From the IMG/VR virus record IMGVR_UViG_3300044712_000988, positions 1 through 42,494 of that record: a stretch of 42,494 bases of DNA; one strand, 5' to 3'. Source of the stretch: a virus. Positions 5,318 to 18,358 of the stretch are shown here, one piece after another. Every line of letters starts with the position of its first letter. Position 1 is the stretch's first letter. Under the pieces are notes generated by a model. It was not told the DNA's origin and did no database searches. It saw only the letters and a list, made by a program, of their open reading frames with translations. A program made the translations under genes and the position numbers.

Positions 5318-6897
5318 CTCCCTCCCCTCCCTCATGCTATCCGAAGAACCACGGCCAGGACCTGACTGACTGGTTTGTCAAGCACGGCCGGAGCGTTGCC
5401 GACCTGACCGATCTCCTGGCCCATGCGATTACCATCGAGGAGGAAAAGCAGGCCCCTGATGCCGGGGTGTTGCGCTTCTTTCGTGGCCGGAAGTTCATGC
5501 CGGCGCTTCTGGCCAAGGCCATCATGGAAGACATCGATGTCATATCTGACCCGTTGACGGGCCTGGTGTATCGCTGGGAAGGGCGCTACTGGGAGGAATA
5601 CGGCCGGGACCATATCGAGCAGAAGGCGCTTTTGATGCTGGGTGAGGAAGGCAACTCGGCGAAGGCGGCGGACGTGGCTAACATGATCTGCAAACTGTCG
5701 ACGCTGCCGATCGGCAAGAAGATGAATGACCACCCGGACCTGATCTGTCTGGAGAACGGCATGCTGAACCTGAGCACGGGCGCCCTGGTGGAACCGGCCA
5801 AGGAATACTATGCCTCGTACATGCTGCCGGTCACGTTCGATCCGAAGAATATCCAGGACTGCCCCCGCTGGAAGCTGTTCCTGGATGAGGCTGTCGTCGA
5901 TCGGGCGGTGATTCGGGAGATCCAGAAGTTTTTCGGCTACTGTCTGACCCGGGAGACGAAGTACGAAAAGATGATGATCTTTTACGGCCCCGGGGGAGAC
6001 GGCAAGTCGAAACTACTGAAGATCCTTAAGGCCCTGGTGGGTGCGAAGAACTGCACGCATATCCCCATGGGCCGGCTGGAGGATCAGTTCTACCTGTCGA
6101 AGCTGGTGGGTAAGCTCCTCAACACGTTCACCGAGGTGGAATCGAAGGCGATGCAAAGCCAGGAGATCAAGGCGATCGTCTCGGGTGATCCTATCTCGGC
6201 ATCGTTCAAGAATGAGACCCCTTTCGACTTCGAGCCCTATTGCAAGCTGGCTTACAGCACGAACAAGCTGCCGAAGATGCTGGACAATTCGGACGGATTC
6301 TTCCGCAAGATCATGATCGTGGAGATGACCCGGCAGTTCGTTCGTATGGGTATGGCTGATATCGACCTGGAGGGGAAGCTCCTGGAGGAGTTGCCCGGCA
6401 TCTTCGCCTGGTCCCTGGCCGGACTGGCTGCCTTGCGAGAAGACAAGGGGTTCGGTGAGCCCGAGCAGATGAAACGCAGCCTGAGCGAATACAAGACGGT
6501 CAACAATAACGTGCTCTACTTCATCCATAAGCACGTCCAGGAGGATCCGGACGGCAAGGAACTGAAGTCGGGTACTGGGTGCGTTTACGACGTCTACACG
6601 AAGCGCTGCCGGGAATGGAACCTCCCTCCCTTTGGCGAGCCGCACTTTCTCAAGGAATTCGCGCGACTGTTGCGGGACATGGGCATCAAGGTCCGCGATG
6701 GGAAGAAGGACATTGTCTCCAGTGCTGCCGGCATCTCGAAGCGCGCAAATTGTTATTGTGGGTTTACTCTCGTCGACGAGAAGTCGGAGGAGGAGTCCGC
6801 CCCCGTTTCCCCCGCTCGCCGGAGGCCCGCCATGAGTGAGATAGCAAGGGTCGTGCCGACCGCGTTTTTGTCCGGGATGTCCGGGATGTCCGGGTAA
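5314..6897 (+). CDS. Replicative helicase, D5/SF3 (P4 primase C-terminal) family
   Basis: A 527-residue ATPase. Residues 1-35 resemble the tail of TOPRIM primases (KNHGQDLTDWFVKHGRS). A D5 N-terminal-like region follows (about 100-200). Walker A is GPGGDGKS at 225-232, Walker B-like LLNTFTEVE at 268-276, and the SF3 sensor region follows (AYSTNKLPKML). The C-terminus (HFLKEFARLLRDMGI) is a winged-helix-like end. The last residues SGMSGMSG are encoded by three TGTCCGGG repeats of the downstream iteron-like cluster. GTG start, coupled to the primase. Predicted to unwind DNA at the phage origin. Confidence 0.88.
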   Translation: MTPSPPSCYPKNHGQDLTDWFVKHGRSVADLTDLLAHAITIEEEKQAPDAGVLRFFRGRKFMPALLAKAIMEDIDVISDPLTGLVYRWEGRYWEEYGRDHIEQKALLMLGEEGNSAKAADVANMICKLSTLPIGKKMNDHPDLICLENGMLNLSTGALVEPAKEYYASYMLPVTFDPKNIQDCPRWKLFLDEAVVDRAVIREIQKFFGYCLTRETKYEKMMIFYGPGGDGKSKLLKILKALVGAKNCTHIPMGRLEDQFYLSKLVGKLLNTFTEVESKAMQSQEIKAIVSGDPISASFKNETPFDFEPYCKLAYSTNKLPKMLDNSDGFFRKIMIVEMTRQFVRMGMADIDLEGKLLEELPGIFAWSLAGLAALREDKGFGEPEQMKRSLSEYKTVNNNVLYFIHKHVQEDPDGKELKSGTGCVYDVYTKRCREWNLPPFGEPHFLKEFARLLRDMGIKVRDGKKDIVSSAAGISKRANCYCGFTLVDEKSEEESAPVSPARRRPAMSEIARVVPTAFLSGMSGMSG

Positions 6898-7166
6898 GCA
6901 AAACATTACACCGGACAGCGCAAAACCGCAACAATCAAGCAATGGCGAGGTTTGTCCGGGATGTCCGGGATAATTTCTATTGCCTCACATAGCGCGCGCA
7001 CGCGCGAACAGATATATAAAAGCACTGTTACTGTTTTAAAAATCTCCTTGGGAATTAAGATTATCCCGGACAGCCCGGACAAAGTTAATAAATACTTGAA
7101 ACCGTTTTAAAAAAGTTTGTCCGGGGAAGCAGAAAAACCCCGGACAGTGCCCGGACAGCCCGGACA
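6869..7166. repeat. Iteron-like cluster of TGTCCGGG octamers; candidate phage origin
   Basis: Twelve copies: forward TGTCCGGG at 6869, 6878, 6887, 6953, 6962 and 7118; reverse CCCGGACA at 7065, 7074, 7139, 7150 and 7159; and a 7-base CCGGACA at 6911. Several are spaced exactly 9 bp. The left copies are mostly forward and the right copies mostly inverted, flanking an AT-rich stretch (about 6970-7064, with GATATATAAA near 7011) and an alternating GC tract (6992-7006). The position directly after primase and helicase fits a replication origin or a regulator-binding array. The 279 bases between genes hold no coding frame I can support. Confidence 0.7.
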
Positions 7167-7176
7167 AGGAGTAGGG

Positions 7177-7410
7177 ATGAACGCACGAAGCGAATTGCGG
7201 CAAGGGATATCGGGCCTGAATGAGGGCGTGTTGACGGATTTCTTTTATGCTCTGCTCAACAGCGCCAAGCGACATGAGACCGTCGAGATCCTTTACCATG
7301 ACTACGTAGACTTCTGCCATGCCCGCGACGTTGAGCCTGGCAGCCAGGGAACGTTCAGCGAGATATTCAACCGCCTGGTCGAGAAGATCGGCAGAGAGAT
7401 CGTGCAATGA
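7177..7410 (+). CDS. Hypothetical protein, 77 aa
   Basis: ATG 7177 follows AAGGAG (7166-7171), which touches the last CCCGGACA repeat, so whatever binds the repeats could also control this gene. The product looks all-helical: LRQGISGLNEGVLTDFFYALLNSAKR, then TVEILYHDYVDFCHARDVE and IFNRLVEKIGREIV. No domain recognised. A role tied to replication is suggested only by location. Confidence 0.55.
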   Translation: MNARSELRQGISGLNEGVLTDFFYALLNSAKRHETVEILYHDYVDFCHARDVEPGSQGTFSEIFNRLVEKIGREIVQ

Positions 7411-7516
7411 CAAGCACGGCAACAATGTCACGGGTCCTTCCTGGAGATAAAAACCTCTGCGGACACGCAAGCGCGCGGGCTTTTCGCGCGAAATGATTTT
7501 TTCGAGGTCCGGAAAT

Positions 7517-7942
7517 ATGGAACGTGGACGAATCATAGCACCATCTTCGGCCTTGCTGTTTACCGGGCAAACACTTCCGCACTTCACACCGGCCGAAGCG
7601 ATGGCACAGTTGTCGGCTCCCCTCCTCGATGAGGATGCGTGCCGCGGCTGGATCCTCCGGATGATTCACCGGGAGCATGGGCCGCGCTGCCCTCACTGCC
7701 AGTCGGCCGAGATCTCCGTAGAGTCATTCTGGCGGGGCCGGCGGATCCGGTGCCCAGGGTGCGGGGGATGGTTTACCGCGTCAACGGGGACGATCCTGGC
7801 ATGGTCCGCCCTGGGCTTCCGGGAGATTTACCTCCTGGGGGTCCTGATCGGCATGGGCCTGGCCGACACGGCGATCGCCGATCGCCTCCAGATCAATCGC
7901 AAAACCGTCGCCGAGTGGCGCCGGAAACTCAAGGGAGTCTGA
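7517..7942 (+). CDS. Zinc-ribbon plus HTH protein resembling the transposase zinc-ribbon family
   Basis: Residues about 50-90 form a zinc ribbon (CPHCQSAEI ... CPGCGGWFTASTGTIL) of the kind found at the N-terminus of IS1595/IS1-type transposases. Residues 110-141 are a helix-turn-helix (GLADTAIADRLQINRKTVAEWRRKL). There is no DDE nuclease domain, and at 141 residues it is complete, so it is not a transposase fragment in the usual sense. It is best read as a DNA-binding regulator. Start chosen at 7517 for the GAGG 9 bases upstream; an in-frame ATG at 7493 lacks one. It could be the protein that binds the nearby octamer repeats, which is inference. Confidence 0.6.
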   Translation: MERGRIIAPSSALLFTGQTLPHFTPAEAMAQLSAPLLDEDACRGWILRMIHREHGPRCPHCQSAEISVESFWRGRRIRCPGCGGWFTASTGTILAWSALGFREIYLLGVLIGMGLADTAIADRLQINRKTVAEWRRKLKGV

Positions 7943-8029
7943 CGGCCGTCGGGCATACTCTTCTGGCCAGCGGTTCGTTCCAGGGGAGTAGGGATAAAAA
8001 GGGCGCGCGCGGCGGGGGAGGGGCGGAGA

Positions 8030-9115
8030 GTGAAATTATCGGTTACTCGTGACAGCTTCAAAGAGGTCCTCGACGGGCTGTATAAGATCGTCGAGAAGAA
8101 ATCAACCTTCCCCGTCCTGTCGCACCTGCACCTGCGAACCGATGAAGATATCCTGGAGGTATGCGCCACGGACCTGAACATCCGTAAGAGCGTGCGGATA
8201 GAAGCCATCATCGATGAGCCCGGGGAGGCGCTTCTCCCCGCGACAATCCTGCGGGACATGGTTTCCGCTGCCTCCCTGGAGAGGATCGAGATCGAAACTA
8301 TCGGCGGACACCGGGTCGCTGCCAGCGCCGGGGAATACCTGGTCAAGATTTCCGGCCTCGATCCTGCCGAATTCCCGCAACCGCCCGCCGATGCCGCCGA
8401 AGAAACCATCGAGATCGAGGCGAAAGACCTGCAGGATATGGTCAATGCCTGCGGATATGCCGCGTCCCGGGACGATTCCAAATGCCATATCAGCGGTGTC
8501 CGCCTCTCCAGCCGCGCCGGGATAGCCTATGCCACAGCCACCGACGGCAACCGGCTTTCCGTGGCCGGCAAACGGCTGCATCAGGCGCTTTCCCTTCCCG
8601 TCACCGTTCCGGTCAAAGGTATGGAAGAGATCCTGCGCCTCGACGACGCTCCCGTTTCCGTGACCCGGGGGGAGAGATACATCGGCCTGACCCAGGGGGG
8701 AATGAGCGTCACCATCCGGCTCCAGGAAGGAGAATTCCCCGATGTTGCCCGGGTGATCCGTTCCGAAAGCCCCGTCATGGTCACCCTGGACGGCCCGGAT
8801 TTCCTCGCCGCGGTCAAGAGGACCGCGTTGTTCGGCAGCAAACAGAAACTCACCCTCTCCATCCAGAAAACATTCATCATCCTTTCCGCCGGGAACAGTG
8901 AAAACGAGGCCACAGATTCAGTCGAATGCGACCTCCACGGGGATCCCCTCGACATCAGCTTCAACGCCCGGTACCTGATCGAGGCCCTTTCCGCGCTCCC
9001 TGTCGGCGATATCTTCCTCAACCTTTGCGACGAAACCTCGGCCGTGGTCATCATTCCCGGTAACATGGCCGGTTGGGATGAGCGCCTGTGCGTCATCATG
9101 CCCATGCGGAGCTAA
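8030..9115 (+). CDS. dnaN: Phage-encoded DNA polymerase III beta subunit (sliding clamp)
   Basis: A 361-residue full-length clamp covering all three DnaN domains. The start (MKLSVTRDSFKEVL), the domain 2 segment (AYATATDGNRLSVAGK, matching the ATDGHRL signature) and the end (VVIIPGNMAGWDERLCVIMPMRS, matching the MPMR-type C-terminus) are diagnostic. GTG start with GGAGGGG about 6 bases upstream. The clamp encircles DNA and tethers polymerases. No phage polymerase or clamp loader is visible, so it would have to be loaded by, and compete for, host proteins. It sits between replication and packaging genes on the same strand, 1 base ahead of the small terminase gene. Confidence 0.92.
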   Translation: MKLSVTRDSFKEVLDGLYKIVEKKSTFPVLSHLHLRTDEDILEVCATDLNIRKSVRIEAIIDEPGEALLPATILRDMVSAASLERIEIETIGGHRVAASAGEYLVKISGLDPAEFPQPPADAAEETIEIEAKDLQDMVNACGYAASRDDSKCHISGVRLSSRAGIAYATATDGNRLSVAGKRLHQALSLPVTVPVKGMEEILRLDDAPVSVTRGERYIGLTQGGMSVTIRLQEGEFPDVARVIRSESPVMVTLDGPDFLAAVKRTALFGSKQKLTLSIQKTFIILSAGNSENEATDSVECDLHGDPLDISFNARYLIEALSALPVGDIFLNLCDETSAVVIIPGNMAGWDERLCVIMPMRS

Positions 9116-9116
9116 C

Positions 9117-9848
9117 GTGCCTGCTGATCTGCCCGAAATACCGGCCGTCGATTCCCTCGAGACAGCCCTCGATTCCCGCGAACGGGAATTGCAGTCCGCC
9201 GTCGACGCCGCATTCGACCAGGCAAAGCGCAAGCCCACCCAGGCGAACCGCAGGGTATGGCGCGATGCCTGCGCCGCCCTCGATCGCTTCAAGTCAGATC
9301 GCCGGGATTCCGGCACCTCGGCAGAGCGCTTTTTCGACGGCCCCCCCGAGGCCCTCGAATACCTGGAAGCCCAGCAGTGGAAGATCGGCAAGACAAAATT
9401 TTACGACGACCTTAAGAACAGGGTGATCGAGCGGCGGGAAGACGGCAGAATCTCCATCCTTGCCCTGGACGAATACACCCGCTGCCTGTCCAAACTCGAC
9501 GGAACCCCGGGACACATGGCCGGCCGCAGTCTCCAGGAGCAGAAAACTATACAGGAGATCGAGCGGATCCGGATCGACCGGGAGATGCGGGAAGTCCGCC
9601 TCCACGCCGAGCGGGGCGAATGGGTGCCGCGCTCCGATGTCGAGATAGAACTGGCCAAGCGGACAAACTATCTCCGCAGCGACCTCAAGAACATCTTCCG
9701 CGCCCTGGCCGGCGAGATCATCAAAGTGACCAAAGGCGACCCCTCCACCATTCCCGCCCTGATCACCTGGGGGGCCGGCGAAGGCGGTGCGGTAGACGAA
9801 ATCATGGACCGGTACAGCCGGCCGATCAAGGGATTCGAAGATGACTGA
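9117..9848 (+). CDS. Putative small terminase subunit
   Basis: GTG 9117 starts one base after the dnaN stop, with CGGAG just upstream. The N-terminal half is helical and acidic. Residues about 75-125 hold an HTH-like segment (ALEYLEAQQWKIGKTKFYDDLKNRVI, then ISILALDEYTRCLSKL) typical of phage Nu1-like DNA-recognition proteins. A coiled-coil-like region follows (RIRIDREMREVRLHAERGEW). Position upstream of a GpA-type large subunit supports the call. Two AT-rich genes separate it from the large subunit. It would recognise the packaging site. Confidence 0.6.
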   Translation: MPADLPEIPAVDSLETALDSRERELQSAVDAAFDQAKRKPTQANRRVWRDACAALDRFKSDRRDSGTSAERFFDGPPEALEYLEAQQWKIGKTKFYDDLKNRVIERREDGRISILALDEYTRCLSKLDGTPGHMAGRSLQEQKTIQEIERIRIDREMREVRLHAERGEWVPRSDVEIELAKRTNYLRSDLKNIFRALAGEIIKVTKGDPSTIPALITWGAGEGGAVDEIMDRYSRPIKGFEDD

Positions 9849-10203
9849 CTTGGAACTAAGTCCAAGGGAGGCATGGCAACGTAAACTGATTACTTTCAGA
9901 CGGTATTTGTTGAGTAAATATAGATACCAGGTTGAAGTCAGTGAAAGGATAATTCTCAGAATTTTGAGGAAAAAGATAATAACCCTGCCATGTGAGGGAG
10001 AAGCTATTATTGAAAGAATGGGAGGTCTACGTAAAAGGTTTGAACATTACAACATAACTAACAGTGTTACTATTTATTACGGTAAAAATAAAATACAACA
10101 TTATCATTGTGATGAGTTTTCAAAAGCGCAATTAAGTAACCGTTTGGCTGCAATGTGCAGGGTAGCAGAAATAGAAATCCAAAACATAAAACGGGGGGGA
10201 TGA
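9841..10203 (+). CDS. AT-rich inserted phage gene, 120 aa, unknown
   Basis: Overlaps the small terminase stop by 8 bases. The product is basic and mixed alpha/beta: KLITFRRYLLSKYRYQVEVSERII, LPCEGEAIIERMGGLRKRFEHYN, then TIYYGKNKIQHYHCDEFSKAQL. Base composition is visibly richer in A and T than the flanking terminase genes, with AAA, ATA and TTA codons. I do not recognise the family. The pairing with the next gene, 3 bases away and equally AT-rich, suggests they were acquired together. Confidence 0.55.
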   Translation: MTDLELSPREAWQRKLITFRRYLLSKYRYQVEVSERIILRILRKKIITLPCEGEAIIERMGGLRKRFEHYNITNSVTIYYGKNKIQHYHCDEFSKAQLSNRLAAMCRVAEIEIQNIKRGG

Positions 10204-10602: not shown

Positions 10603-12663
10603 ATGTCCAACCTCGCCCACAAACTTCCCGATCCTCCCCCCCGCGACTTCACCTGGCTCCCGGGAGAGATCGAAGTGCTCCGCAAAAAAGAGCCACTCCC
10701 CAATGGCGCTGCCGACTGGGCACCGCGGCACCGTGTCATCTCCCGGTCCTCACGCCCCGGCCCCTATCGCCACGAAAACTCCCCCTACTTCTACGGCCTC
10801 ATGGTCCTTTACTCCCGGCCCTGGCTCCGTGAGCTCACCCTCTGCGCCGGGTCCCAGCTCGGCAAGACCGACGGCCTCCTCTACAACACCCACGGCTACG
10901 ACGTCCATTACGATCCAGGGGATACCCTCTTCGTCATGCCCACCCGGGACACCACCAAAGACGTCTCCCTCGACCGCGTCGACGACATGTACGACAGTTG
11001 CGACGTGCTCCGGGCCATGAAGAGCCGCAACCCCGACGACACCAGCATGACCCGCAAGAAACTGCGCAACGGCGTCGTCTCCTACTTCGGCTGGGCCGGT
11101 TCCGATGCTGTCCTCGCCTCCAAGCCCATCAAGTACGTCAAGATCGACGAGGCCGACCTCGTCGGCCGGCGCTCCATGAACCTGGCCCGCGCGCGCTTCC
11201 GCACCTTCCGCCACGAATACAAATTCATCGCCGTATCCAAGCCCTCCTACGACGACGGCCCGATCTGGGAAGACCTCAACGCCTCCCATGCCATCTTTGA
11301 CTTCCATGTCGCCTGCCCCCACTGCGACCACGACCAGGTCATGAACTTCGCCCAGTTCCGCTGGACCGAAGGGGTCACCGACCCCCGAAAGATCGAGATG
11401 ACCGGCGATGCCTGGTACGAATGCGGCGAATGCGGCAAGCCCTGGAGCGAGTACGACCGCGACGAAGCAGTCAAGGCCGCCATGCAGGATGGCGAATACG
11501 GCGGGTGGAAGCCCCGCCAGTTGTGCGCCTGCTGCGATATCCAGATGGTAGACGGCCGTTGCCCCAAGTGCCGCGGCGAAGAGGCCGCCCCGATCCCCGC
11601 CGAACCCGAGCATGCCGGGGCGCACCTGCCCGCCTTCTATTCCCCCTACGTCCTCTTTGCCGACATCGTCGCCGATTACCTCCGCTACCTCCAGGACCCG
11701 GCCGCCCGCGAAAACGAAAAGACCCCCAGCAACGCCGAGAAATTCTGGTGCGACGACTGCGCCCTCCCCATCCGCACCAGCCAGGACGGCGAAACCCTCA
11801 GCGAACAGACCCTCTACGATCGCCGCGAATGGTACAGCCCCAAAGGTGCCAGGTGGGAAATCCCCCTGGCGGCCGCGCTCCTCACCGCCTTTGTCGACGT
11901 CCAGGGCAACCGCCTGGAGATCGAGGTCGAAGCCTGGGGGATGAAAAAAGAAAACTGGGGGATCTGTCATGAAGTCCTGCCCGGCAACCCGGAAAAAGAA
12001 GAAGTCTGGCGGGACCTCGAAGAGCGGTTTCTCGAACGCACCTGGCGCCACGAGTCCGGCGTCGAGATGACCATCACCGCCCTGGCTGTCGATTCCGGCT
12101 ACCTCCCCGACATGGTCTACAAATTCGTCAAGAAGTGGCGCAAGCGGCGCAAGGTCTACGCAACCAAAGGTTGGGCCATGCCGGGCAAGCCGATCAAGGG
12201 CAAACCCTCCATGAACAACAGCTACAAAATCCCCGTCTACATGATCGGCACCGAAGCGGCCAAAGACACCATCTTCGGCTGGCTCGACGTGGCCGAGCCC
12301 GGCCCCTACTACCGGCATTTCTCCCGGGCCTATGGCTACGAGTTCTTCCGCCAGCTCTGTAGCGAAGAGGGCAAAACCAAAAAAGACAAGCGCGGCCGCT
12401 CCGTCAAAGTCTACGAGATCCGCAAAGGGTACAACCGGAACGAAGGCCTCGACCTGGTCGTCGGCAACCTGGCGGCGTACGAGATCCTGAATCCCGTCAT
12501 GGAGCGCCTGGTGGAAAACCTCAAGGCCGGCGGCACCGGCCGGCGACCAAAGGTCAAAGACAGCGACAACGAGTCCCGAGTCACAAGTCACGAGTCCCGA
12601 GTCCCGAGCCCCGAGTCCCGAAACTCAACCGGCGAGCGTGGCCGGCCGAACTGGAGGAAATAA
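10603..12663 (+). CDS. Terminase large subunit, GpA family
   Basis: The 686-residue packaging motor. Walker A is AGSQLGKT at 82-89 and Walker B VKIDEAD at 179-185. Two zinc clusters follow (CPHCDHD with CGECGKPW, then CACCDIQ with CPKCRGEE), as in lambda gpA relatives. The C-terminal nuclease part is visible as FVDVQGNRLEIEVEAWG and ALAVDSGYLPDMV, carrying the acidic metal ligands. It packages DNA into the prohead through the portal and cuts it to length. The last 35 residues are translated from a 7-bp-period repeat (12571-12626), giving an SRV/ESR-rich tail unlike the rest of the protein and probably dispensable. Confidence 0.93.
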   Translation: MSNLAHKLPDPPPRDFTWLPGEIEVLRKKEPLPNGAADWAPRHRVISRSSRPGPYRHENSPYFYGLMVLYSRPWLRELTLCAGSQLGKTDGLLYNTHGYDVHYDPGDTLFVMPTRDTTKDVSLDRVDDMYDSCDVLRAMKSRNPDDTSMTRKKLRNGVVSYFGWAGSDAVLASKPIKYVKIDEADLVGRRSMNLARARFRTFRHEYKFIAVSKPSYDDGPIWEDLNASHAIFDFHVACPHCDHDQVMNFAQFRWTEGVTDPRKIEMTGDAWYECGECGKPWSEYDRDEAVKAAMQDGEYGGWKPRQLCACCDIQMVDGRCPKCRGEEAAPIPAEPEHAGAHLPAFYSPYVLFADIVADYLRYLQDPAARENEKTPSNAEKFWCDDCALPIRTSQDGETLSEQTLYDRREWYSPKGARWEIPLAAALLTAFVDVQGNRLEIEVEAWGMKKENWGICHEVLPGNPEKEEVWRDLEERFLERTWRHESGVEMTITALAVDSGYLPDMVYKFVKKWRKRRKVYATKGWAMPGKPIKGKPSMNNSYKIPVYMIGTEAAKDTIFGWLDVAEPGPYYRHFSRAYGYEFFRQLCSEEGKTKKDKRGRSVKVYEIRKGYNRNEGLDLVVGNLAAYEILNPVMERLVENLKAGGTGRRPKVKDSDNESRVTSHESRVPSPESRNSTGERGRPNWRK
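12571..12626. repeat. Heptad repeat inside the 3' end of the large terminase gene
   Basis: Eight tandem 7-bp units of the form GAGTCCC, GAGTCAC, AAGTCAC, GAGTCCC, GAGTCCC, GAGCCCC, GAGTCCC, GAAACTC. It is the same kind of degenerate short-period array seen between the late genes, here read as codons. Seven is not a multiple of three, so consecutive units are read in different frames. Confidence 0.85.
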
Positions 12664-12666
12664 AAC

Positions 12667-12906
12667 ATGACACGTCCGTCAACCTTGGCCCGCGAACCGC
12701 AACGATCAACCTGCAACGTTGAGCAGGCCCGCGAAAAACTGTGCCGGGACAAGCCGCCGTCACGCCAGCACATCTACAACCTGTTCAACCGTGGGGATCT
12801 GGAGGGGTACTTTGTGGGAGACGGCCGGGGGCTGCGGATATTCGTCGATTCCATCGAGGCGTACCGGTTGCGGCAGACGGGAGAAGCGTTGATGGGGGCA
12901 TCATGA
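12667..12906 (+). CDS. Small HTH/excisionase-like DNA-binding protein, 79 aa
   Basis: GGAGG precedes ATG 12667. Residues 17-70 fit a MerR/excisionase-type helix-turn-helix with wing (VEQAREKLCRDKPPSRQHIYNLFNRGDLEGYFVGDG, then LRIFVDSIEAYR). Such genes are common next to terminases. The role is probably DNA binding, either regulatory or in packaging. It is the last phage gene before the integron; its stop (12904-12906) marks the left limit of the inserted region. Confidence 0.6.
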   Translation: MTRPSTLAREPQRSTCNVEQAREKLCRDKPPSRQHIYNLFNRGDLEGYFVGDGRGLRIFVDSIEAYRLRQTGEALMGAS

Positions 12907-13149
12907 AGGTTTTACAGAGTTGGGAGAACGTGGCGGCGGATGAGCGGCCCCCGCGCAGCGGGAGACCGTTTCTATCCGCTGGTTCGGCGCGCCTGCCGTT
13001 GGCTAAGATGACCATGTTCCTGGCGCGCCGGGGAAATGATTCATCGGTGGCAATCGCGGGCCGGACTAGCGAACTACAGTTCTCAGGGGTTGATTTTAAA
13101 GCGCGCGCAGTTGACTTTGGTTCAGACCGCGTAGCGGAAAGGAAAGTAT
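12907..13149. other. Left boundary of the integron; candidate attI region
   Basis: These 243 bases have no convincing gene. A frame opens at ATG 12903 for 96 codons, but its product is compositionally unremarkable and overlaps the first cassette. If cassettes enter at the 5' end of the array, attI must lie here. Candidate core sites are GTTGACT at 13111-13117 (6 of 7 bases of GTTRRRY) and GTTCAGA at 13121-13127. The stretch also holds inverted copies of two pieces of the first attC (12928-12950 and 13089-13107). The text ACCGCGTAGCG at 13127-13137 recurs in attC3 (14942-14952). Confidence 0.4.
12928..13107. repeat. Left inverted copies of attC1 segments
   Basis: Positions 12928-12950 (begins GAACGTGGCGG) are the exact reverse complement of 13741-13763, and 13089-13107 (begins GGTTGATTTT) of 13718-13736. 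A shorter third match joins GTTCGGCGCGCCT near 12984 to AGGCGCGCCGAAC near 13785. On the right the first two pieces are almost adjacent; on the left they are split by about 138 bp, so one side has an insertion or the other a deletion. Confidence 0.8.
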
Positions 13150-13527
13150 ATGAAAGCATGCCCATTTTGTGGACAACTGCCAATTCAGTGTGACGAGCCT
13201 GATTTTTGGCGAATATTGCATGCGGATGATTGCTGGATAGTTTCTACTGGTCAAATTACAGAGGAATGTTGCCAGTATATAACTTGCAAACAGGACGCCG
13301 ATAGTTGGAGTAAAAGAGTGTGTGAACAGGGTTGTGAACTGGCCAAAAAAGAGAAGGCAGTTAGGTCGGCATACAACGATTTGCTAAAGCGTGTCCACTT
13401 TGACGAAACAACCCCGCCGGGCGAGAGGTGGCACATCATGGCGATACTGGGAGAGCTGATGCAGGAGAACAAGCTCTTAAAGTACGAGAATGCTGCGCTG
13501 AATATACTCAACGAAGGCGGAGAATAA
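13150..13527 (+). CDS. Cassette A gene 1: Lar-like zinc ribbon with helical tail, 125 aa
   Basis: Starts MKACPFCGQLP, the hallmark opening of the Lar (restriction alleviation) zinc-ribbon family, with AAGGA a few bases upstream. A second cysteine set follows (EECCQYITC, RVCEQGCELAKK). Residues 65-125 form a long helical segment (AVRSAYNDLLKRVHF, ILGELMQENKLLKYENAAL) absent from plain Lar proteins. Codon use is more AT-rich than the phage late genes, consistent with cassette import. Lar from the Rac prophage modulates type I restriction; the same role here is inference. Confidence 0.6.
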   Translation: MKACPFCGQLPIQCDEPDFWRILHADDCWIVSTGQITEECCQYITCKQDADSWSKRVCEQGCELAKKEKAVRSAYNDLLKRVHFDETTPPGERWHIMAILGELMQENKLLKYENAALNILNEGGE

Positions 13528-13529
13528 TT

Positions 13530-13691
13530 ATGAAACCATGTCCGTTCTGTGGAGGCAAGGAAACCTACGTAGACCATGTCGTTATCGATGACGGATACGT
13601 GTATTTCCGCGTTTGCAAGAAATGCGAATGCGAAGGGCCTGTGGCTGATAGTGTGGAAGGAGCAAAAAAGAAATGGGATGAAAGGGTTTAA
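13530..13691 (+). CDS. Cassette A gene 2: Lar family protein, 53 aa
   Basis: MKPCPFCGGKETYV, then FRVCKKCECEGPVADSVEGAKKKWDERV, is a complete Lar-type single zinc ribbon (CPFC ... CKKC) with the usual EG-A-KKWDER end, at the family's typical length. It starts 2 bases after the previous stop. The TAA stop lies inside the first base-paired box of attC1 (GTTTAAC, 13686-13692), as expected for a cassette gene. Predicted to protect incoming phage DNA from host restriction, by analogy to Lar. Confidence 0.75.
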   Translation: MKPCPFCGGKETYVDHVVIDDGYVYFRVCKKCECEGPVADSVEGAKKKWDERV

Positions 13692-13838
13692 CGCCTTTAT
13701 CGGGCTGAAAGCCCGATGCGCGCTTTAAAATCAACCTTTAGCCGCTCATCCGCCGCCACGTTCGGCACGACGAGCGGAGCGAGGCGCGCCGAACGGGTTG
13801 CCGGTGTGCGGCCTGACCGCACCACTGGCGGGTTATGC
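13686..13838 (+). other. attC: attC1 (end of cassette A), unusually long
   Basis: R'' GTTTAAC at 13686-13692 matches RYYYAAC exactly; R' GTTATGC lies at 13832-13838. Flanking pairs AACGCC (13690-13695) and GGCGGGTT (13827-13834) form the outer stem. Inside are a perfect ATCGGGCT/AGCCCGAT hairpin (13699-13717) and a GTTCGGC/GCCGAAC pair. The length of 153 bp is above the usual range and suggests a composite site or an insertion between the arms. Confidence 0.65.
13718..13763. repeat. Right inverted copies matching 12928-13107
   Basis: GCGCGCTTTAAAATCAACC (13718-13736) and the 23 bases at 13741-13763 are exact reverse complements of 13089-13107 and 12928-12950. Together with the left copies they bracket cassette A, which could make it a separately mobile or invertible unit. 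Confidence 0.8.
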
Positions 13839-13865
13839 CCGTCAGGTGCCACGGAGAAAATGAAG

Positions 13866-14054
13866 ATGACCTATCCAAAAATTAAACAGTGCCCTACATG
13901 TGGAGAATCTGGAGACAATCTGAGTGTCTACACCTACGATAGCGGCGGAAGGCATGTCGAGTGCAACAAGTGCCACTATCTCGGCCCGTGCGGAGGAAGC
14001 ATCTTATCCGCGATCCGGTTGCATAACGAACGCTGCACGAAAGGACAGCCATGA
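13866..14054 (+). CDS. Cassette B gene 1: zinc-ribbon protein, Lar-like, 62 aa
   Basis: Start ATG 13866 is preferred over 13860 because GGAG (13853-13856) is then 9 bases away. Motifs are IKQCPTCGESGD, then HVECNKCHYLGPCGG and a helix (SAIRLHNERC), matching the CPxC...CxxC...GP layout of Lar-like ribbons. The cassette begins with TTATGC right after the attC1 crossover point. It ends in an ATGA overlap with the DUF551-like gene, so the cassette carries two coupled genes. Confidence 0.6.
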   Translation: MTYPKIKQCPTCGESGDNLSVYTYDSGGRHVECNKCHYLGPCGGSILSAIRLHNERCTKGQP

Positions 14055-14299
14055 ACGGATGGATAGCAACAAAGGATCGTCTGCCAGAAGATGGCCAAGA
14101 AGTGACCATACGGATGATGCACGGACAGATTAAGCAGGTTGTCAGGGATCGGACGTATGCAGGCGGATGGAAACAGGTGAATTGTCAGGGGTGGGAGATT
14201 GTCACCTGGCACGCAGATACCGTCACGCATTGGCGACCAGAAATATTTGACCGGCCAGCTAAAACCGGCCCAGAGAACGCGCCCTGGATGAGGGCATAA
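14051..14299 (+). CDS. Cassette B gene 2: DUF551-like protein, 82 aa
   Basis: MNGWIATKDRLPEDGQEVTIRM ... VTHWRPEIF has the W-I---RLPE-G--V start and VTHW-P end that define the DUF551 family, common in phages and prophages and of unknown function. The C-terminal 20 residues run toward attC2, and the TAA at 14297-14299 lies in its R'' box. Coupled to the zinc ribbon before it. Predicted soluble. Confidence 0.75.
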   Translation: MNGWIATKDRLPEDGQEVTIRMMHGQIKQVVRDRTYAGGWKQVNCQGWEIVTWHADTVTHWRPEIFDRPAKTGPENAPWMRA

Positions 14300-14354
14300 C
14301 GATCAAGCTGACCGGCGCGGGTTCATCGCGTCCGTGTCGGGCGGCTTGTTATGA
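14294..14354 (+). other. attC: attC2 (end of cassette B)
   Basis: A classic 61-bp attC plan: R'' GCATAAC (14294-14300), L'' CAAGC (14304-14308), L' GCTTG (14344-14348), R' GTTATGA (14348-14354). The central arms CCGGCGCGG (14312-14320) and CCGTGTCGG (14332-14340) pair over nine positions with two G-T wobbles. Imperfect pairing with conserved ends is the feature recognised by IntI on the folded bottom strand. Confidence 0.85.
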
Positions 14355-14366
14355 TGGGAACCACCG

Positions 14367-14927
14367 ATGATTTCAGTCTTATTTGCGAGAGCAGACAGCA
14401 ATTACAAGACGATCCCTGACGTGGATGTGTGGGACGCTGAACGTGACGCCCTCACTTGGCCGGGAGGTACTCCAGTTGTGGCACATCCTCCCTGCCGAGC
14501 ATGGGGGCGGCTGCGGCACTTCGCCAAGCCGAGACCGGATGAAAAGGCGCTGGCGTACTTTGCGATTGAGGCCGTGCGGAAGTTCGGCGGGGTTCTGGAG
14601 CATCCGGCCAGCTCAACACTTTGGCCGGATGCCGGATTGCCTGCACCTGGCAAACGGGATCAGTTCGGCGGGTGGACGCTCGGAGTTAATCAGCATTGGT
14701 GGGGACACCGGGCGGAGAAAAAAACTCTGCTTTACATTTGTGGCGTTGAGCCCCGCGACATTCCGCCCCTGCCGCTCCGATTGGATGATCCAACACATAT
14801 TGTGGGATCGAGCCGGCGCAAGAGCGCAATTCGGTTGCCGGAAGTTTCCAAGGCTGAGCGGGAGCATACTCCACCAGATTTCGCGGTCTGGCTGGTGGAA
14901 TTGGCAAGACGTTGCAGACCATCATAA
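14367..14927 (+). CDS. Cassette C: phage-type protein with PPC motif, 186 aa
   Basis: Contains VVAHPPCRAWGRLRHFAKP and later GGVLEHPASSTLW, a combination I associate with a protein family frequent in phage genomes. PPC and LE-P are reminiscent of motifs IV and VI of cytosine-5 DNA methyltransferases, but no SAM-binding motif I is visible, so activity is doubtful. Other landmarks are FGGWTLGVNQHWWGHRAEKKT and a C-terminal KAEREHTPPDFAVWLVELARRC. It starts 18 bases after the attC2 crossover and its TAA (14925-14927) lies in the attC3 R'' box. Function unknown. Confidence 0.65.
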   Translation: MISVLFARADSNYKTIPDVDVWDAERDALTWPGGTPVVAHPPCRAWGRLRHFAKPRPDEKALAYFAIEAVRKFGGVLEHPASSTLWPDAGLPAPGKRDQFGGWTLGVNQHWWGHRAEKKTLLYICGVEPRDIPPLPLRLDDPTHIVGSSRRKSAIRLPEVSKAEREHTPPDFAVWLVELARRCRPS

Positions 14928-14984
14928 CGGCTACGGCGTGTACCGCGTAGCGAAGCGGAGACGGACACCACGCCGTGGTTATGT
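14922..14984 (+). other. attC: attC3 (end of cassette C)
   Basis: R'' TCATAAC (14922-14928) and R' GTTATGT (14978-14984) enclose a strong stem ACGGCGTG (14933-14940) with CACGCCGT (14969-14976), plus an inner CCGC/GCGG pair. Length 63 bp. The ends match those of attC1 and attC2 (ATAAC...GTTATG), showing one family of sites served by one integrase. Confidence 0.85.
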
Positions 14985-15007
14985 CCGTCTTTTGACAGGA
15001 GTAACTT

Positions 15008-15379
15008 TTGGAAACTGGTAAAGCTCATGATTGCCCAGCTATTTGCAATGACGATTGCGCCAACTGCTGCCATAACCCTCCGCTTACCAAGGATTGGGAG
15101 TGCGGAAAGTGTGGTGCGCGGTATATGGCGAGGGCAACGGCTGAACGTTGTTGTGGCAACAACCGTCCTAAATATTGGGGCGACAACCATCATTATTACA
15201 AATGGCGCATTGATACCGTCGAGGTGGTGGAGTACGCCCATCGCCAGTTTTATGGCGGCTTGTACCATTACAGATTTAAAACGAGGCCGGAAGCGGATGA
15301 AGCATTGGACCGCCTCAACCATCGCCAAAAATGTGAGGTGGTGGAAATTCGGAACTGGCGGCGAAAATCAGAGGCATAA
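15008..15379 (+). CDS. Cassette D: Cys-rich zinc-binding protein, 123 aa
   Basis: TTG start at 15008, with AGGAG at 14997-15001. The N-terminal 60 residues are dense in cysteine (HDCPAICNDDCANCCHN, WECGKCGARYM, AERCCGNNRP), consistent with two zinc sites. The C-terminal half has aromatic and basic residues (HHYYKWRIDTVEVVEYAHRQFYGG, FKTRPEADEALDRLNHRQ). TAA (15377-15379) lies in the attC4 R'' box. The family is not recognised; nucleic-acid or protein binding is plausible. Confidence 0.6.
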   Translation: METGKAHDCPAICNDDCANCCHNPPLTKDWECGKCGARYMARATAERCCGNNRPKYWGDNHHYYKWRIDTVEVVEYAHRQFYGGLYHYRFKTRPEADEALDRLNHRQKCEVVEIRNWRRKSEA

Positions 15380-15412
15380 CAATCATTATCCCCCTGGACT
15401 GGCATGATAGTT
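15374..15412 (+). other. attC: attC4 (end of cassette D), short or degenerate
   Basis: R'' GCATAAC (15374-15380) is identical to that of attC2. AAC-A-ATCAT (15378-15386) pairs with ATGAT-A-GTT (15404-15412) around TCC/GGA, so a symmetric stem exists. The R' box would be GTTTTTA rather than GTTATG, and the span is only about 40 bp. It is either a worn last attC or an attC truncated when joined to the intI leader, whose ribosome site (AAGGAGG) starts at 15415. Confidence 0.5.
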
Positions 15413-15428
15413 TTTAAGGAGGATTGTC

Positions 15429-16466
15429 ATGAACACAGCAAGAAAAACGAACCTTTACCACCTCCCGCCGCGTGATAACCTGGCACCGAAAAGCGGACAG
15501 CAGATTAAAAAAGAGCAACTGCTCGACAAGCTCGCCAAAGCCATCCGCCTGAAGCATTACTCCCGGGAGACGGAACGGTCCTATGTGAATTACGTGGCCG
15601 CGTTCATCGATTTCCGCATGAAGCGCAGATCCGGGACCGAGGGGGCCGCGGCCATCGAGGAATACCTCACCTACATGGCCCTGGAGAAGAAGGTTGCCGC
15701 CTCCACCCAGAACGTCGCCTTCAATGCCCTGCTCTTCTTCTACCGCCGCGTGCTCGGCGTCGAGCCGGGCGAGATCAACGCCTGCCGTGCGAAAAAACCA
15801 CAGCGCCTGCCCGTCGTCTGCACCCGCGAAGAAGTTGCAGCCATCCTCGACCATCTGAAAGGCGACGCCTGGCTGGTGGTTGCCCTCCTTTACGGTTGCG
15901 GCCTGCGGGCCGAGGTAGATGGCCTGTCCCTCCGGGTCAAAGACATCGACTTCGGCCAACGCACCGTCACCATCCGCGAAAGTAAGGGCGGCAGCGCCCG
16001 GGTGCTCTCCTTGCCGGAACAGTTGCACGAAAGGCTCCAGCGCCACATACAAAAGGTCAAGGCAATCCACGAAATGGATCTGCGCGAAGGATGGGGAGCG
16101 GTCGAGCTGCCCGGCGCCCTGGCCCGGAAATACCCGAACGCCAACAAGGAATTCGGCTGGCAGTTCCTCTTCCCGGCTGCCACCCGCTGGACAGACAAAG
16201 AAACCGGCCGGCAGGGCCGTCCCCATATTCACGAGACGGCAATTCAAAAGGCTGTCAAGTCCGCCCGGATCGCCGCCCGGATCTACAAGCACGTCACCCC
16301 GCACACCTTTCGGCACAGTTACGCCACACACCTGCTCGAAGACGGCGAAACCATCCGCACCGTCCAGGAGCTGCTCGGCCACAAGAGCGTCAAGACCACC
16401 ATGATCTACACCCATGTCATGCAAAAGAAATCCTCCGTTCGCAGCCCGTTAGATAGACTGCTGTAA
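15429..16466 (+). CDS. intI: Integron integrase IntI (tyrosine recombinase)
   Basis: A 345-residue recombinase that catalyses attC x attI and attC x attC exchange. The SAM-like N-domain has the IntI wording [19 protein letters not shown] (31-49). Catalytic residues R160 (GCGLR), K186, H292 and R295 ([13 protein letters not shown]), H318 (LLGHKS) and Y327 (MIYTHV) are all present. Residues about 214-250 ([21 protein letters not shown], then WQFLFPA) form the extra segment found in IntI and absent from XerC/D and phage integrases. The C-terminus VRSPLDRLL matches class 1 IntI (VRSPLD). AAGGAGG precedes ATG 15429. It lies downstream of, and parallel to, the cassettes, and is followed by phage head genes. 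Confidence 0.93.
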
Positions 16467-16502: not shown

Positions 16503-16520
16503 AAATGACACCCCCCTTGA

Positions 16521-16547
16521 GATCATGCTACACCCCGTAGCATGATC
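16521..16547 (+). promoter_or_regulatory. Perfect 11-bp hairpin covering the gpW-like start codon
   Basis: GATCATGCTAC (16521-16531) and GTAGCATGATC (16537-16547) are exact complements around ACCCC. The ATG of the next gene (16542-16544) is inside the right arm, and no ribosome site is visible upstream. The structure would hide the start in mRNA, or serve as a protein operator in DNA. It is not followed by a T-run, so it is not an intrinsic terminator. Confidence 0.75.
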
Positions 16548-16781
16548 TCTCCTTTTGACACCCTCGCAGAAGTCAACACGCATCTGACGGCCGCCAAAGC
16601 CGCCCTGATCGACCTCATGTCCGGCAAAGAGGTCCGCCTCAGCGTCGGCGGCGGCGACCGCACCTACAAGACCGAAGACCTCGACAAACTCCAGGCGCAC
16701 GTCGCCTTCCTTTCCAAAGAGCGGGCCAAGTTCCTGAAAACCAACCGCCCCGTCACCGTCCAGGGGAGGCCCGCCCGATGA
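16542..16781 (+). CDS. gpW-like head-tail joining protein, 79 aa
   Basis: Length and position (directly before the portal gene) match lambda gpW. The sequence MISPFDTLAEVNTHLTAAKA, then LIDLMSGKEVRLSVGGGDRTYKTEDLDKLQAH fits the gpW pattern of helix, beta hairpin and helix. gpW stabilises packaged DNA and forms the platform for tail attachment. ATGA overlap with the portal gene. The start codon is embedded in a perfect hairpin, which may regulate its translation. Confidence 0.75.
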   Translation: MISPFDTLAEVNTHLTAAKAALIDLMSGKEVRLSVGGGDRTYKTEDLDKLQAHVAFLSKERAKFLKTNRPVTVQGRPAR

Positions 16782-18358
16782 AGCGCCCTCTCCTGAAAGT
16801 CAACACCTGGGACCGGTTCGTCGGCATCACTAACCCCGAGAAAGCCCTCCGCCAGGCCAAAGCCCGCACCGCCCTCAACTTCATGGCCGGCACCGTCTCC
16901 CGCACCGGGGCCGGTACGAAAGGCACCCTCGGCAACTGGTTCGTCCGCCGCCTCTCCCGGTTTACCGAGTCATGGGAGCGGACCCGCACCACCGATCGCG
17001 CCGAAGACCTGATCGCCAACAACCCCTACGCGGCATCCATCGTCGATTCCACCGCACTCAACGTCGTGGGCGGGACCGGCCTTATCCCCCAGTCCCGCCC
17101 CAACTGGAAAGTGCTCGGCATAACCGAAGAGCAGGCGCAGGCCATCTCCGACCAGGCGGAATACTGGTTCAACGTCTGGGCCGACCGGGCCGGCGCCGAA
17201 GGCGAGAAGTTCGCCGATCTGCAATACACCACCATGCACACCATGGTCGGCCGGGGCGAATACCTCAACCTCCCCGTCTCCCTGGAGACCGGACCGAACC
17301 GGGACTTCAACCTGGCAATCCAGATCCTCGATCCCCGCCGCCTCCGGACCCCCTACAGCGCAGCCGTCGACCCGTTCGTCCGCGACGGCATCAAGCTCAG
17401 CCCCCGCGGCGAAAAGCTCATTTACTACATCGCCAACCCCGACGACGGCCTGCTCACCGTCAACCTCAACAGCAACCAGTTCGAGCCGGTCCCCGCCTGG
17501 CGGGCGCACCGCCCCGGCATCCTCCACGGCTTCATCAAGAAAGACCCCGAGCAGGTGCGCGGCCTGCCGTCGCTCGCCACCTGCATGAAACAGTTCCGCG
17601 ACTTCGACGACTACATGGACTTCGAAGTCGTGGGGGCCATCCTCGCCGCCTCCTTCCCCGTCTTCATCGAGACCCCCGACGGCGACGAGCCCGAAGACTA
17701 CATCGGCGAAACCGAAGCCGGGGGCACCCTGGACCGCCCGGTCAAATACAAATCCTACGAGCCCGGCCAGGTCATGTACGGTTCCGCCGGGCAGAAACCC
17801 AGCGTCCTGAAAAGCGAGCGCCCCGGCAACTCCTTCCCGATCTTCGTCGAGGTCATGCAGCGGATGTTCGGCGTTGCCGGCCTCCTGCCGTACGAGATCG
17901 TCACCAAGGATTTCAGCAAGACCAATTACAGCAGCGCCAAGGCCGCCCTTAACGAAGCCTACCGGATCTTCATGCTCTACATCTGGCACCTGATCAACCA
18001 CCATAACCACCCGATCTGGTCCATGGTCTTCGAAGAGTCCTGGCTGCGCGGCCGGATCAAACTGCCGAAGAGCGCCCCCGATTTCTACCAGGCCCGGGCC
18101 GCTTACTGTGCCGCCAAATGGATCCCGCCGAAACGGATGGTCCTGGACGAAGTCAAGCAGGTTGCCGCCGGCAAGGAAGAGATCATCAGTAACATGGGCA
18201 CCCTGGCCGACTGGTACGCCGAGCAGGGCGAGGACTGGCAAGAGCAGCTCCGCCAGATCGCCCGCGAACGCCAGGTCATGAAAGAGCTCGGCCTGACCAT
18301 GGCCGACATGCCCGGTTTCGATTTGAAGGGGCTGGCAACGCAGCCGGAGAGGCAGTAA
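16778..18358 (+). CDS. Portal protein, lambda gpB family
   Basis: A 526-residue portal. Typical features are AEDLIANNPYAASIVDSTALNVVGGTGLIPQ near residues 75-105, YWFNVWADRAG, and the central VMQRMFGVAGLLPYEIVTKDFSKTNYSSAKAALNEAYR (about 350-390), which is diagnostic of lambda-type portals. The dodecameric ring forms the DNA channel at one capsid vertex, docks the terminase and later connects the tail. Its end is followed by a heptad-repeat spacer. Confidence 0.93.
   Translation: MKRPLLKVNTWDRFVGITNPEKALRQAKARTALNFMAGTVSRTGAGTKGTLGNWFVRRLSRFTESWERTRTTDRAEDLIANNPYAASIVDSTALNVVGGTGLIPQSRPNWKVLGITEEQAQAISDQAEYWFNVWADRAGAEGEKFADLQYTTMHTMVGRGEYLNLPVSLETGPNRDFNLAIQILDPRRLRTPYSAAVDPFVRDGIKLSPRGEKLIYYIANPDDGLLTVNLNSNQFEPVPAWRAHRPGILHGFIKKDPEQVRGLPSLATCMKQFRDFDDYMDFEVVGAILAASFPVFIETPDGDEPEDYIGETEAGGTLDRPVKYKSYEPGQVMYGSAGQKPSVLKSERPGNSFPIFVEVMQRMFGVAGLLPYEIVTKDFSKTNYSSAKAALNEAYRIFMLYIWHLINHHNHPIWSMVFEESWLRGRIKLPKSAPDFYQARAAYCAAKWIPPKRMVLDEVKQVAAGKEEIISNMGTLADWYAEQGEDWQEQLRQIARERQVMKELGLTMADMPGFDLKGLATQPERQ

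What the first reader, a model, noticed from the sequence alone, without database searches (positions are those of the whole stretch)
12907..16466. A complete integron (intI plus four attC-ended cassettes) inside a phage late operon
The recombinase has all tyrosine-recombinase catalytic residues and the IntI-only insertion (about 214-250). Four palindromic sites share GCATAAC/GTTATG-type ends, and cassette stop codons lie in the R'' boxes. It sits exactly between packaging and head genes without breaking either. I know of no described integron in this setting but cannot search the literature. It would give a phage a cassette-swapping accessory locus that moves between hosts.
Basis: partly seen in the sequence, partly recalled or inferred. 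Interest (0 to 1): 0.95.

Follow-up and report, generated by a model that had tools for sequence, protein, structure and literature searches.

The report
Phage-dedicated integron with mirror-image cassettes
A bacterial virus carries its own gene-swapping platform (an integron, a system known mainly from bacteria) in the middle of its virion-building genes, and related platforms with different gene cargo recur in many other phages, which suggests that phages have a cassette-exchange system of their own.

Summary
Window 15429-16466 encodes a true integron integrase (TIGR02249, 400.6 bits, cutoff 265), next to an attI-like site and four attC candidates: one strong, one weak but homologous to a site in another phage, two weak. 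It lies between terminase and portal genes of a phage.

Corrections. (1) attC polarity is minus, away from intI as usual; the cassette ORFs are reversed (antisense to attC) and read toward intI along the phage operon. At sites of 11 phage loci 20 ORFs are reversed, 3 canonical; in bacterial control arrays 12 and 70. (2) It is not unique: the closest IntIs (72-89% mutual identity) sit in six further phage contigs, while bacterial IntIs found stop near 54% (58% for one fragment). A last scan kept 80 IntI relatives from IMG/VR, mostly in phage-only clades. Same-backbone phages carry largely different arrays at one place; attC sites and one gene recur in unlike phages.

Cargo with a known family leans to DNA modification and anti-restriction. 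Integrons in phages were published in 2023, with host-type or class 1 integrases. Recombination itself is untested.

The parts
15429..16466 (+). intI, integron integrase, 345 aa; putative catalytic R160, K186, H292, R295, H318, Y327 (roles recalled)
   Evidence: TIGR02249 400.6 bits; these residues invariant in the 8-row alignment; tree position
15380..15428 (-). attI-like site just 5' of intI; inferred crossover G^TT at 15380/15379
   Evidence: conserved sequence in 8 aligned loci, similarity ends at the GTT (by eye)
14922..14984 (-). attC of cassette 1
   Evidence: 13.1 with bacterial model; only 7.1 bits with CM; 82% identical over 60 bp to an attC of L011
14928..15379 (-). cassette 1 (next to attI); boundaries inferred
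   Evidence: attI and attC crossover points
15008..15379 (+). cassette 1 ORF, 123 aa, no family match, antisense to attC; stop TAA at 15377-15379 inside the attI R box
14294..14354 (-). attC of cassette 2
   Evidence: 41.1; CM 39.3 bits, E 8.7e-7; 93% over 45 bp to a site in L115
14300..14927 (-). cassette 2; boundaries inferred
14367..14927 (+). cassette 2 ORF, 186 aa, phage family phrog_12600, function unknown
   Evidence: E 1.1e-75; stop TAA in the R' box of attC 14922-14984
13788..13838 (-). attC of cassette 3, degenerate
   Evidence: 10.5; CM 12.3 bits; 77% over 66 columns to a stretch of L010
13794..14299 (-). cassette 3; boundaries inferred
13869..14054 (+). cassette 3 ORF a, Lar-like restriction alleviation (weak)
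   Evidence: phrog_599 E 3.3e-5; no Pfam match
14051..14299 (+). cassette 3 ORF b, DUF551
   Evidence: PF04448 E 6.8e-7; stop TAA in the R' box of attC 14294-14354
12923..12988 (-). distal attC candidate of cassette 4, weak
   Evidence: CM 12.9 bits; box-finder hit on both strands; under 10 with the position model
12929..13793 (-). cassette 4; boundaries tentative, inner part rearranged
   Evidence: 23-bp inverted repeat
13150..13527 (+). cassette 4 ORF a, 125 aa, no family match
13530..13691 (+). cassette 4 ORF b, Lar-type restriction alleviation protein
   Evidence: PF14354 E 5.4e-9; phrog_599 E 1.3e-11
10603..12663 (+). terminase large subunit, gpA type (upstream flank)
   Evidence: PF20454 and PF05876, phrog_15
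12667..12906 (+). small HTH-like ORF (upstream flank)
   Evidence: PF12728 E 5.7e-4, below its curated cutoff; no PHROG
16542..16781 (+). head-tail adaptor-like ORF (downstream flank)
   Evidence: phrog_75 E 5.9e-5
16778..18358 (+). portal protein, lambda type (downstream flank)
   Evidence: PF05136 E 1.3e-72

Best explanation
This is an integron that belongs to a phage lineage rather than to the host. IntI inserts circular cassettes at the attI just upstream of its own gene, by the usual attI x attC reaction on the folded attC strand, and shuffles or excises them. The cassettes are mirror-image: their genes lie antisense to attC and read toward attI and intI, so they are transcribed from the phage operon as ordinary phage genes (often with stop codons formed by the TAAC of the R boxes) and not from an integron promoter. 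Phages thereby swap small accessory genes, some of them for DNA modification or anti-restriction, at one tolerated place. Shown by sequence: IntI identity, attI-like site, attC polarity, reversed ORFs, largely different arrays in same-backbone phages, shared attCs, phage-only integrase clades. Inferred: catalysis, transcription by phage promoters, benefit by counter-defence, transfer during co-infection or lysogeny.
For: IntI far above the TIGR02249 cutoff. Nearest IntIs, 72-89% mutual identity, all in phage contigs: L002-L006 (IMG/VR) and L011, which lies in a Mu-like phage contig of a MAG; the clade has 99/94 support. Other IntIs: at most 54% among the rest of the 80 kept of 338 in genome contigs; at most 54% (58% for one fragment) in the other 195 of 196 genomes around that MAG; 52-53% in the four other genomes that matched at E <= 1e-100 among 395 of its phylum. 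Conservation upstream of intI stops at the GTT in 8 loci. attC strand: all 19 array sites of score 10 or more, in 7 of 8 loci, lie opposite intI; two hits on the other strand overlap stronger ones; CM: 25 of 25 matches at E <= 10 over 11 sources, 11 of them under 0.1 and 5 under 0.01. ORF polarity: 20 reversed, 3 canonical, 3 undecided against 12, 70, 30 in bacteria, Fisher 1.6e-10; 74 further IMG/VR loci: 69, 25, 51. Pfam at E <= 0.001: 9 of 24 array ORFs on the intI strand against 0 of 10 on the attC strand. Largely different arrays in like backbones. Tree of 186 rows: 9 label changes, shuffles about 61.
Against: No recombination was observed. Three of the four window attCs are weak with bacterial models, and a + strand match (7.9 bits) outscores one of them. 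L002, L005 and L010 gave no CM match at E <= 10, L005 no site of 10 or more, and most of the 25 CM matches have E above 0.1. The cassette-4 end carries inverted repeats and may be rearranged. 25 of 94 decidable sites in the extra IMG/VR set are canonical, 8 of them in one contig, L189. Only a minority of array ORFs match a Pfam family; in the scan of 122, the 25 families shown match one or two members each, so the counter-defence role rests on few genes. Same-backbone arrays are not wholly unlike: a match (84 bp, 73%) between L002 and L004 and a weak translated match between L003 and L010 remain. IMG/VR labels and metagenome assembly are taken on trust; terminase was found in 31 of 50 contigs searched.
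Confidence: 0.83

Rival explanations
1. A host chromosomal integron was captured once by this phage, as described for Vibrio anguillarum phage p16; it is a passenger.
For: That happens in published phages (PMC9892861); the MAG that holds the nearest relative outside IMG/VR has a second IntI, beside housekeeping-like ORFs by eye.
Against: That second IntI is only 43% identical, the phage ones 72-89% to each other in unlike phages; phage-only clades in the tree; arrays differ at one place; cassette ORFs are mostly reversed relative to host arrays.
Confidence: 0.07
2. The array is canonical and points to the + strand (ORF followed by attC); intI merely sits at its far end and attI lies elsewhere.
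For: On the + strand most ORF stops fall in an R-box-like TAAC, as in ordinary cassettes; weak + strand CM matches exist.
Against: Position of the unpaired base in the stem, and two models trained on bacterial attCs, put the sites on the minus strand; the conserved attI-like site with its GTT break is next to intI.
Confidence: 0.05
3. A relic: the integrase no longer acts and the cassettes are fixed phage genes.
For: Two relatives, L007 and L099, keep an attI-like site and at least one attC but have lost most of intI by internal deletion; three of the four attCs here are weak.
Against: IntI here is full length with putative catalytic residues kept; arrays of same-backbone relatives are largely different; one attC type is 84-96% identical in four contigs.
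Confidence: 0.12

Closest known systems
Integrons in phage genomes (Qi et al. 2023, PMC9892861)
   Same: intI, attI and attC inside phage genomes; methyltransferase cassettes; a CALIN flanked by tail, scaffold and terminase genes in Shewanella phage M16-3; five of six phage attCs recombined by IntI1 in their assay
   Different: their complete integrons are host or class 1 types (Vibrio, Shewanella, P1); no phage-specific IntI clade and no reversed cassette ORFs appear in the main text that I read
Sedentary chromosomal integron
   Same: IntI, attI beside the 5' end of intI, attC polarity away from intI
   Different: cassette ORFs mostly run with attC there, against it here; located in chromosomes
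Treponema-type atypical integron (PMC3607928, passages)
   Same: intI and cassette genes share one direction
   Different: there intI points toward attI; here intI points away from attI and it is the cassette ORF that is reversed
Virus Rctr41k (KX853513)
   Same: phage genome with an IntI (43%) and an array; listed genes all one way
   Different: attCs lie downstream of intI on its own strand, ORFs with attC; intI annotated as 'integrase-like protein', no integron annotated
XerC / XerD
   Same: tyrosine recombinase family
   Different: below model cutoffs; two Xer rows lie outside the IntI tree

Membership tests
Integron (complete) | integron integrase gene | tested here: met
   TIGR02249 full length, 400.6 bits
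Integron (complete) | attI site next to intI | tested here: met
   conserved sequence ending at G^TT; by sequence only, not by assay
Integron (complete) | two or more attC sites in one polarity | tested here: met
   one strong, one supported by homology, two weak, all minus strand
Integron (complete) | cassette genes in the sense of attC, read from Pc (usual rather than defining) | tested here: not met
   orientation reversed in the window and at most decidable phage sites; Pc not tested
Integron (complete) | attI x attC recombination | not testable with these tools
   needs a bench assay
Phage-borne integron (Qi 2023) | integron inside a phage genome | tested here: met
   terminase, adaptor-like, portal, protease, head gene flanks
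Phage-borne integron (Qi 2023) | IntI of host or class 1 type, as in the published complete cases | tested here: not met
   all 9 INPHARED records matched at E <= 1e-20 are under 60%; own clade
Treponema-type integron | intI transcribed toward attI | tested here: not met
   intI points away from the attI-like site
XerC/XerD | equivalog cutoff | tested here: not met
   123.7 of 335.15 and 117.4 of 329.6 bits
CALIN | two or more attC sites without intI | tested here: not met
   intI intact here; L099, with intI deleted and two attCs, might qualify

The most novel reading that the evidence does not exclude
Tailed phages own several old lineages of integrons with a separate pool of mirror-image cassettes, which move from phage to phage and deliver counter-defence and nucleotide-modification genes straight into phage operons: a phage-to-phage gene exchange system distinct from the bacterial cassette pool.
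Probability: 0.68. Interest if true: 0.93.

Novelty: new variant of a known kind. Interest (0 to 1): 0.88.

Why it matters
Integrons are described mainly as bacterial adaptive platforms. Phage-dedicated integrase clades with reversed cassettes would give phages a dedicated way to swap accessory genes, help to explain phage mosaicism at one site, and define a cassette pool whose genes would be antisense to the usual promoter in host integrons. It makes testable whether phages trade anti-restriction genes by site-specific recombination.

Tried and rejected
Rfam scan and tRNA scan of the window: nothing. Reading the array as canonical on the + strand: rejected on attC strand evidence. XerC/D: rejected. 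An attI pattern scan of viral contigs returned 9 stretches: 3 were known loci (of L003, L004, L005), 1 (L099) a relative with a deleted intI, and 5 carry no close IntI. L006 against L007 gave one short translated match, L006 against L099 none. The simple box finder is noisy, also on the + strand; a stricter use of the same idea seeded the later model. No structure was predicted, since the sequence match was decisive. Rows dropped: control arrays are 61 of the 79 bacterial loci L012-L090, picked by hand for upstream sequence; site thresholds differ (10 for core phage loci, 14 for the extra IMG/VR set, 20 for bacteria). In the first tree rows under 200 aa, in the second rows under 220 aa and duplicate loci were left out; the labels 'phage' and 'bacterial' are mine, two MAG contigs (L011, L115) being counted as phage. 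In the Pfam scan of cassette ORFs 122 of the 124 listed were given (L011 Mor and one L189 ORF left out). The 10 attC-strand ORFs were picked as long ones, not at random; the 9 of 24 leaves out Mor and a repeat of window 14367. The extra IMG/VR set holds near-identical contigs (for one, five identical IntIs among L192-L198), so its counts are not independent. Terminase was sought in 50 of the 74 new contigs, those of 18,264 bases or more. The 160 relatives may include other tyrosine recombinases; only the best 80 were kept and seen.
Full report
WHAT IS THERE. The window is an IMG/VR virus record of 42,494 bases. At 15429-16466 it encodes a 345-aa protein that matches the NCBIfam integron integrase model over its whole length with 400.6 bits against a cutoff of 265; XerC and XerD models score 123.7 and 117.4 bits against cutoffs of 335.15 and 329.6. 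Upstream lie a possible small terminase subunit (E 1.7e-4) and a gpA-type large one; downstream come a head-tail adaptor-like ORF (E 5.9e-5), a lambda-type portal, a head protease and a major head protein, all on the + strand. An integrase-like gene at 41078-42280 on the minus strand (phrog_95) suggests a temperate phage.

THE SITES. I trained a position and pairing model on 100 attC sites found beside bacterial intI genes only. In the window it marks 14294-14354 (41.1), 14922-14984 (13.1) and 13788-13838 (10.5), all on the minus strand; a further hit, 35625-35701 (11.5, minus), lies outside the array and is presumably chance. Block-shuffled phage DNA gave 73 hits of 10 or more and one of 20 or more in 3.0 Mb of strand. 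A covariance model from 28 of the bacterial sites gives 39.3 bits to 14294-14354, 12.9 to 12923-12988, 12.3 to 13788-13838 and 7.1 to 14922-14984, all on the minus strand; only the first is significant alone, and 4 of the 12 matches listed are on the + strand, the best with 7.9 bits. 14922-14984 is 82% identical over 60 bp to an attC of L011; 14293-14337 is 93% identical over 45 bp to a stretch of L115 (10413-10457) that the covariance model marks weakly (12.7 bits) and the position model does not. Between the array and intI lies a sequence of the type GATAATnATTG^TTA in six loci and GATAATCAGTAG^TTA in L009 and L010; beyond the GTT the eight loci differ (by eye). I take it as attI.

POLARITY. 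In 8 phage loci, all 19 array sites of score 10 or more (in 7 of the loci; L005 had none) lie on the strand opposite intI; two hits on the other strand overlap stronger ones, and three hits lie outside arrays (window 35625, L002 8533, L004 17201). With the covariance model, 25 of 25 matches at E <= 10 over 11 sources lie opposite intI or its remnant, 11 of them with E under 0.1 and 5 under 0.01; L002, L005 and L010 have none. So attI, attC and intI are arranged as in ordinary integrons. The ORFs are not: they lie on the intI strand, many with stop codons formed by the TAA of the R' boxes. Counting which ORF ends at each site, 11 phage loci have 20 reversed, 3 canonical and 3 undecided sites; 61 bacterial loci 12, 70 and 30 (Fisher 1.6e-10). 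Comparing longest ORFs per cassette gave 12 reversed, 2 canonical, 5 ties in phages and 12, 78, 24 in bacteria. Ten long ORFs on the attC strand matched no Pfam family at E <= 0.01; of 24 array ORFs on the intI strand 9 matched one at E <= 0.001: Lar and DUF551 (window), an N6/N4 methylase and DUF4406 (L011), Thy1 (L010), C5 methylases (L099, L115), an N6/N4 methylase and Dam (L115).

RELATIVES. IMG/VR holds close IntIs in L002-L006 (77-86% to the window), and remnants in L007 and L099, where intI has an internal deletion but the attI-like site stays. Genome contigs gave 338 relatives of which the best 80 were kept: one at 77% (L011), the rest 54% or less. L011 lies in a 33.6-kb contig of a MAG that encodes a Mu-type transposase, a transposition protein, Mor, endolysin, terminase and portal: a Mu-like phage. 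The same MAG has a second IntI at 43% beside housekeeping-like ORFs by eye. In 196 genomes around that MAG the next best full match was 54%, one fragment 58%; in 395 genomes of its phylum four further genomes matched at E <= 1e-100, with 52-53%. INPHARED gave 9 records at E <= 1e-20, all under 60%; in plasmids the 5000 best records are all under 60%. In the tree the window clade has 99/94 support, joined by L009, L010 and a RecT-bearing MAG contig (L108/L115) with 100/99; two Xer rows lie outside.

A LARGER SET. A last scan found 160 relatives in IMG/VR by tblastn, 80 kept; 74 were new. In these, attC hits of 14 or more number 145 upstream on the strand opposite intI, 31 upstream on the other (10 in L189), 16 and 5 downstream; polarity is reversed at 69, canonical at 25 (8 in L189), undecided at 51. 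A quick tree of 186 rows needs 9 changes between phage and bacterial labels, against about 61 in shuffles, none of 500 as low; there are phage-only clades of 26 (with the window), 26, 11 and 8 rows. Terminase families were found in 10 and 22 of 50 contigs searched, 31 in union. Reading those coordinates, in L133, L134, L137, L138, L144, L150, L158 and L160 the terminase match starts 0.1-1.2 kb after the IntI match on the same strand; in the second large clade it lies on the other strand in 10 of the 11 contigs with a terminase match (three near-identical), so the rule is 'with intI', not 'with late genes'.

EXCHANGE. L002, L004 and L005 share genes on both sides of the integron but little within it: the one nucleotide match between L002 and L004 outside the flanks (84 bp, 73%) lies beside L004's array and at another place in L002. 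L003 and L010 share the head genes (up to 90% in translated segments) and an integron before a small-terminase-like gene, with IntIs 47% identical; their arrays share no nucleotide match but one weak translated one (39%). The window and L009 share the adaptor-portal block after intI (up to 91%). One attC type is 84-96% identical in L002, L010, L099 and L115, the match covering essentially only the attC. One gene, in L099 a C5 methyltransferase, aligns at 69-78% in L099, L146, L179, L182 and L203, whose IntIs (L099's a remnant) lie in different clades; it ends at an attC or at the attI region in L099, L146 and L179, and lies within 6 kb upstream of intI in L182 and L203. Of 81 short matches between phage arrays 41 overlap an attC, which make up 4.4% of the bases. 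Phage and bacterial arrays share 3 pairs, all with one bacterial contig (L073), against 98 phage pairs and 42 bacterial pairs, of 75 and 61 arrays; sampling differs, so this is only a hint.

CARGO. In 122 cassette ORFs scanned, 27 Pfam families were matched; the 25 shown are in one or two members each: N6/N4 and C5 methylases, Mom, Lar, Thy1, PTPS, MazG, Aca2/YdiL, NADAR, DUF551 and others. That leans to DNA modification and anti-restriction, but rests on few genes.

WHAT IS KNOWN. Qi et al. 2023 (PMC9892861; main text read as parts 1-4 of 7) found 3 complete integrons, one In0 and 17 CALINs in 10,705 phage genomes and showed that IntI1 uses five of six phage attCs tested. Their complete cases are Vibrio, Shewanella and class 1 types. 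The Treponema layout (PMC3607928, passages) shares gene direction but by turning intI. Searches of the paper library (listings only) showed no paper on a phage-specific integrase lineage or on generally reversed cassettes; the library lacks most subscription papers and all preprints. In IntegronFinder 2.0 (passages found by the words phage, prophage, virus) phages are mentioned only in passing.

VERDICT. A real, complete-looking integron, and a representative of phage-dedicated integrons with mirror-image cassettes. Anatomy and comparative evidence are strong; activity, expression and benefit are inferred.

Noticed in passing
window 8030-9115: The phage encodes a DNA polymerase III beta clamp homologue (TIGR00663, E 9.6e-59) just before the possible small terminase gene.
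   Followed up: no
window 12926-13104 and 13724-13763: A 23-bp and a 19-bp inverted repeat link the two ends of cassette 4 (for the 23-bp one; the other seen by eye), as if part of an attC had been turned round.
   Followed up: partly
window 16519-16549: A 13-bp-arm hairpin stands between intI and the adaptor-like gene, overlapping its start; terminator-like or an operator.
   Followed up: no
L109 (KX853513, Virus Rctr41k) 4680-10101: A public phage record holds an integron that is not annotated as such: IntI plus six attC hits of 17 or more downstream on the same strand.
   Followed up: partly
L007 1672-1752; L099 5811-5957: Two phage relatives have lost most of intI by internal deletion yet keep the attI-like site and at least one attC.
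   Followed up: partly
L113 8481-12752: In the Mu-like phage the array starts right after the Mor activator gene, whose stop codon lies in the first attC.
   Followed up: partly
L159, L176, L186, L190: Four members of another phage IntI clade have attC hits downstream of intI on its strand, like Rctr41k.
   Followed up: no
L124 (G101:C55): A bacterial array with a repeated stretch, 99% over 312 bp.
   Followed up: no
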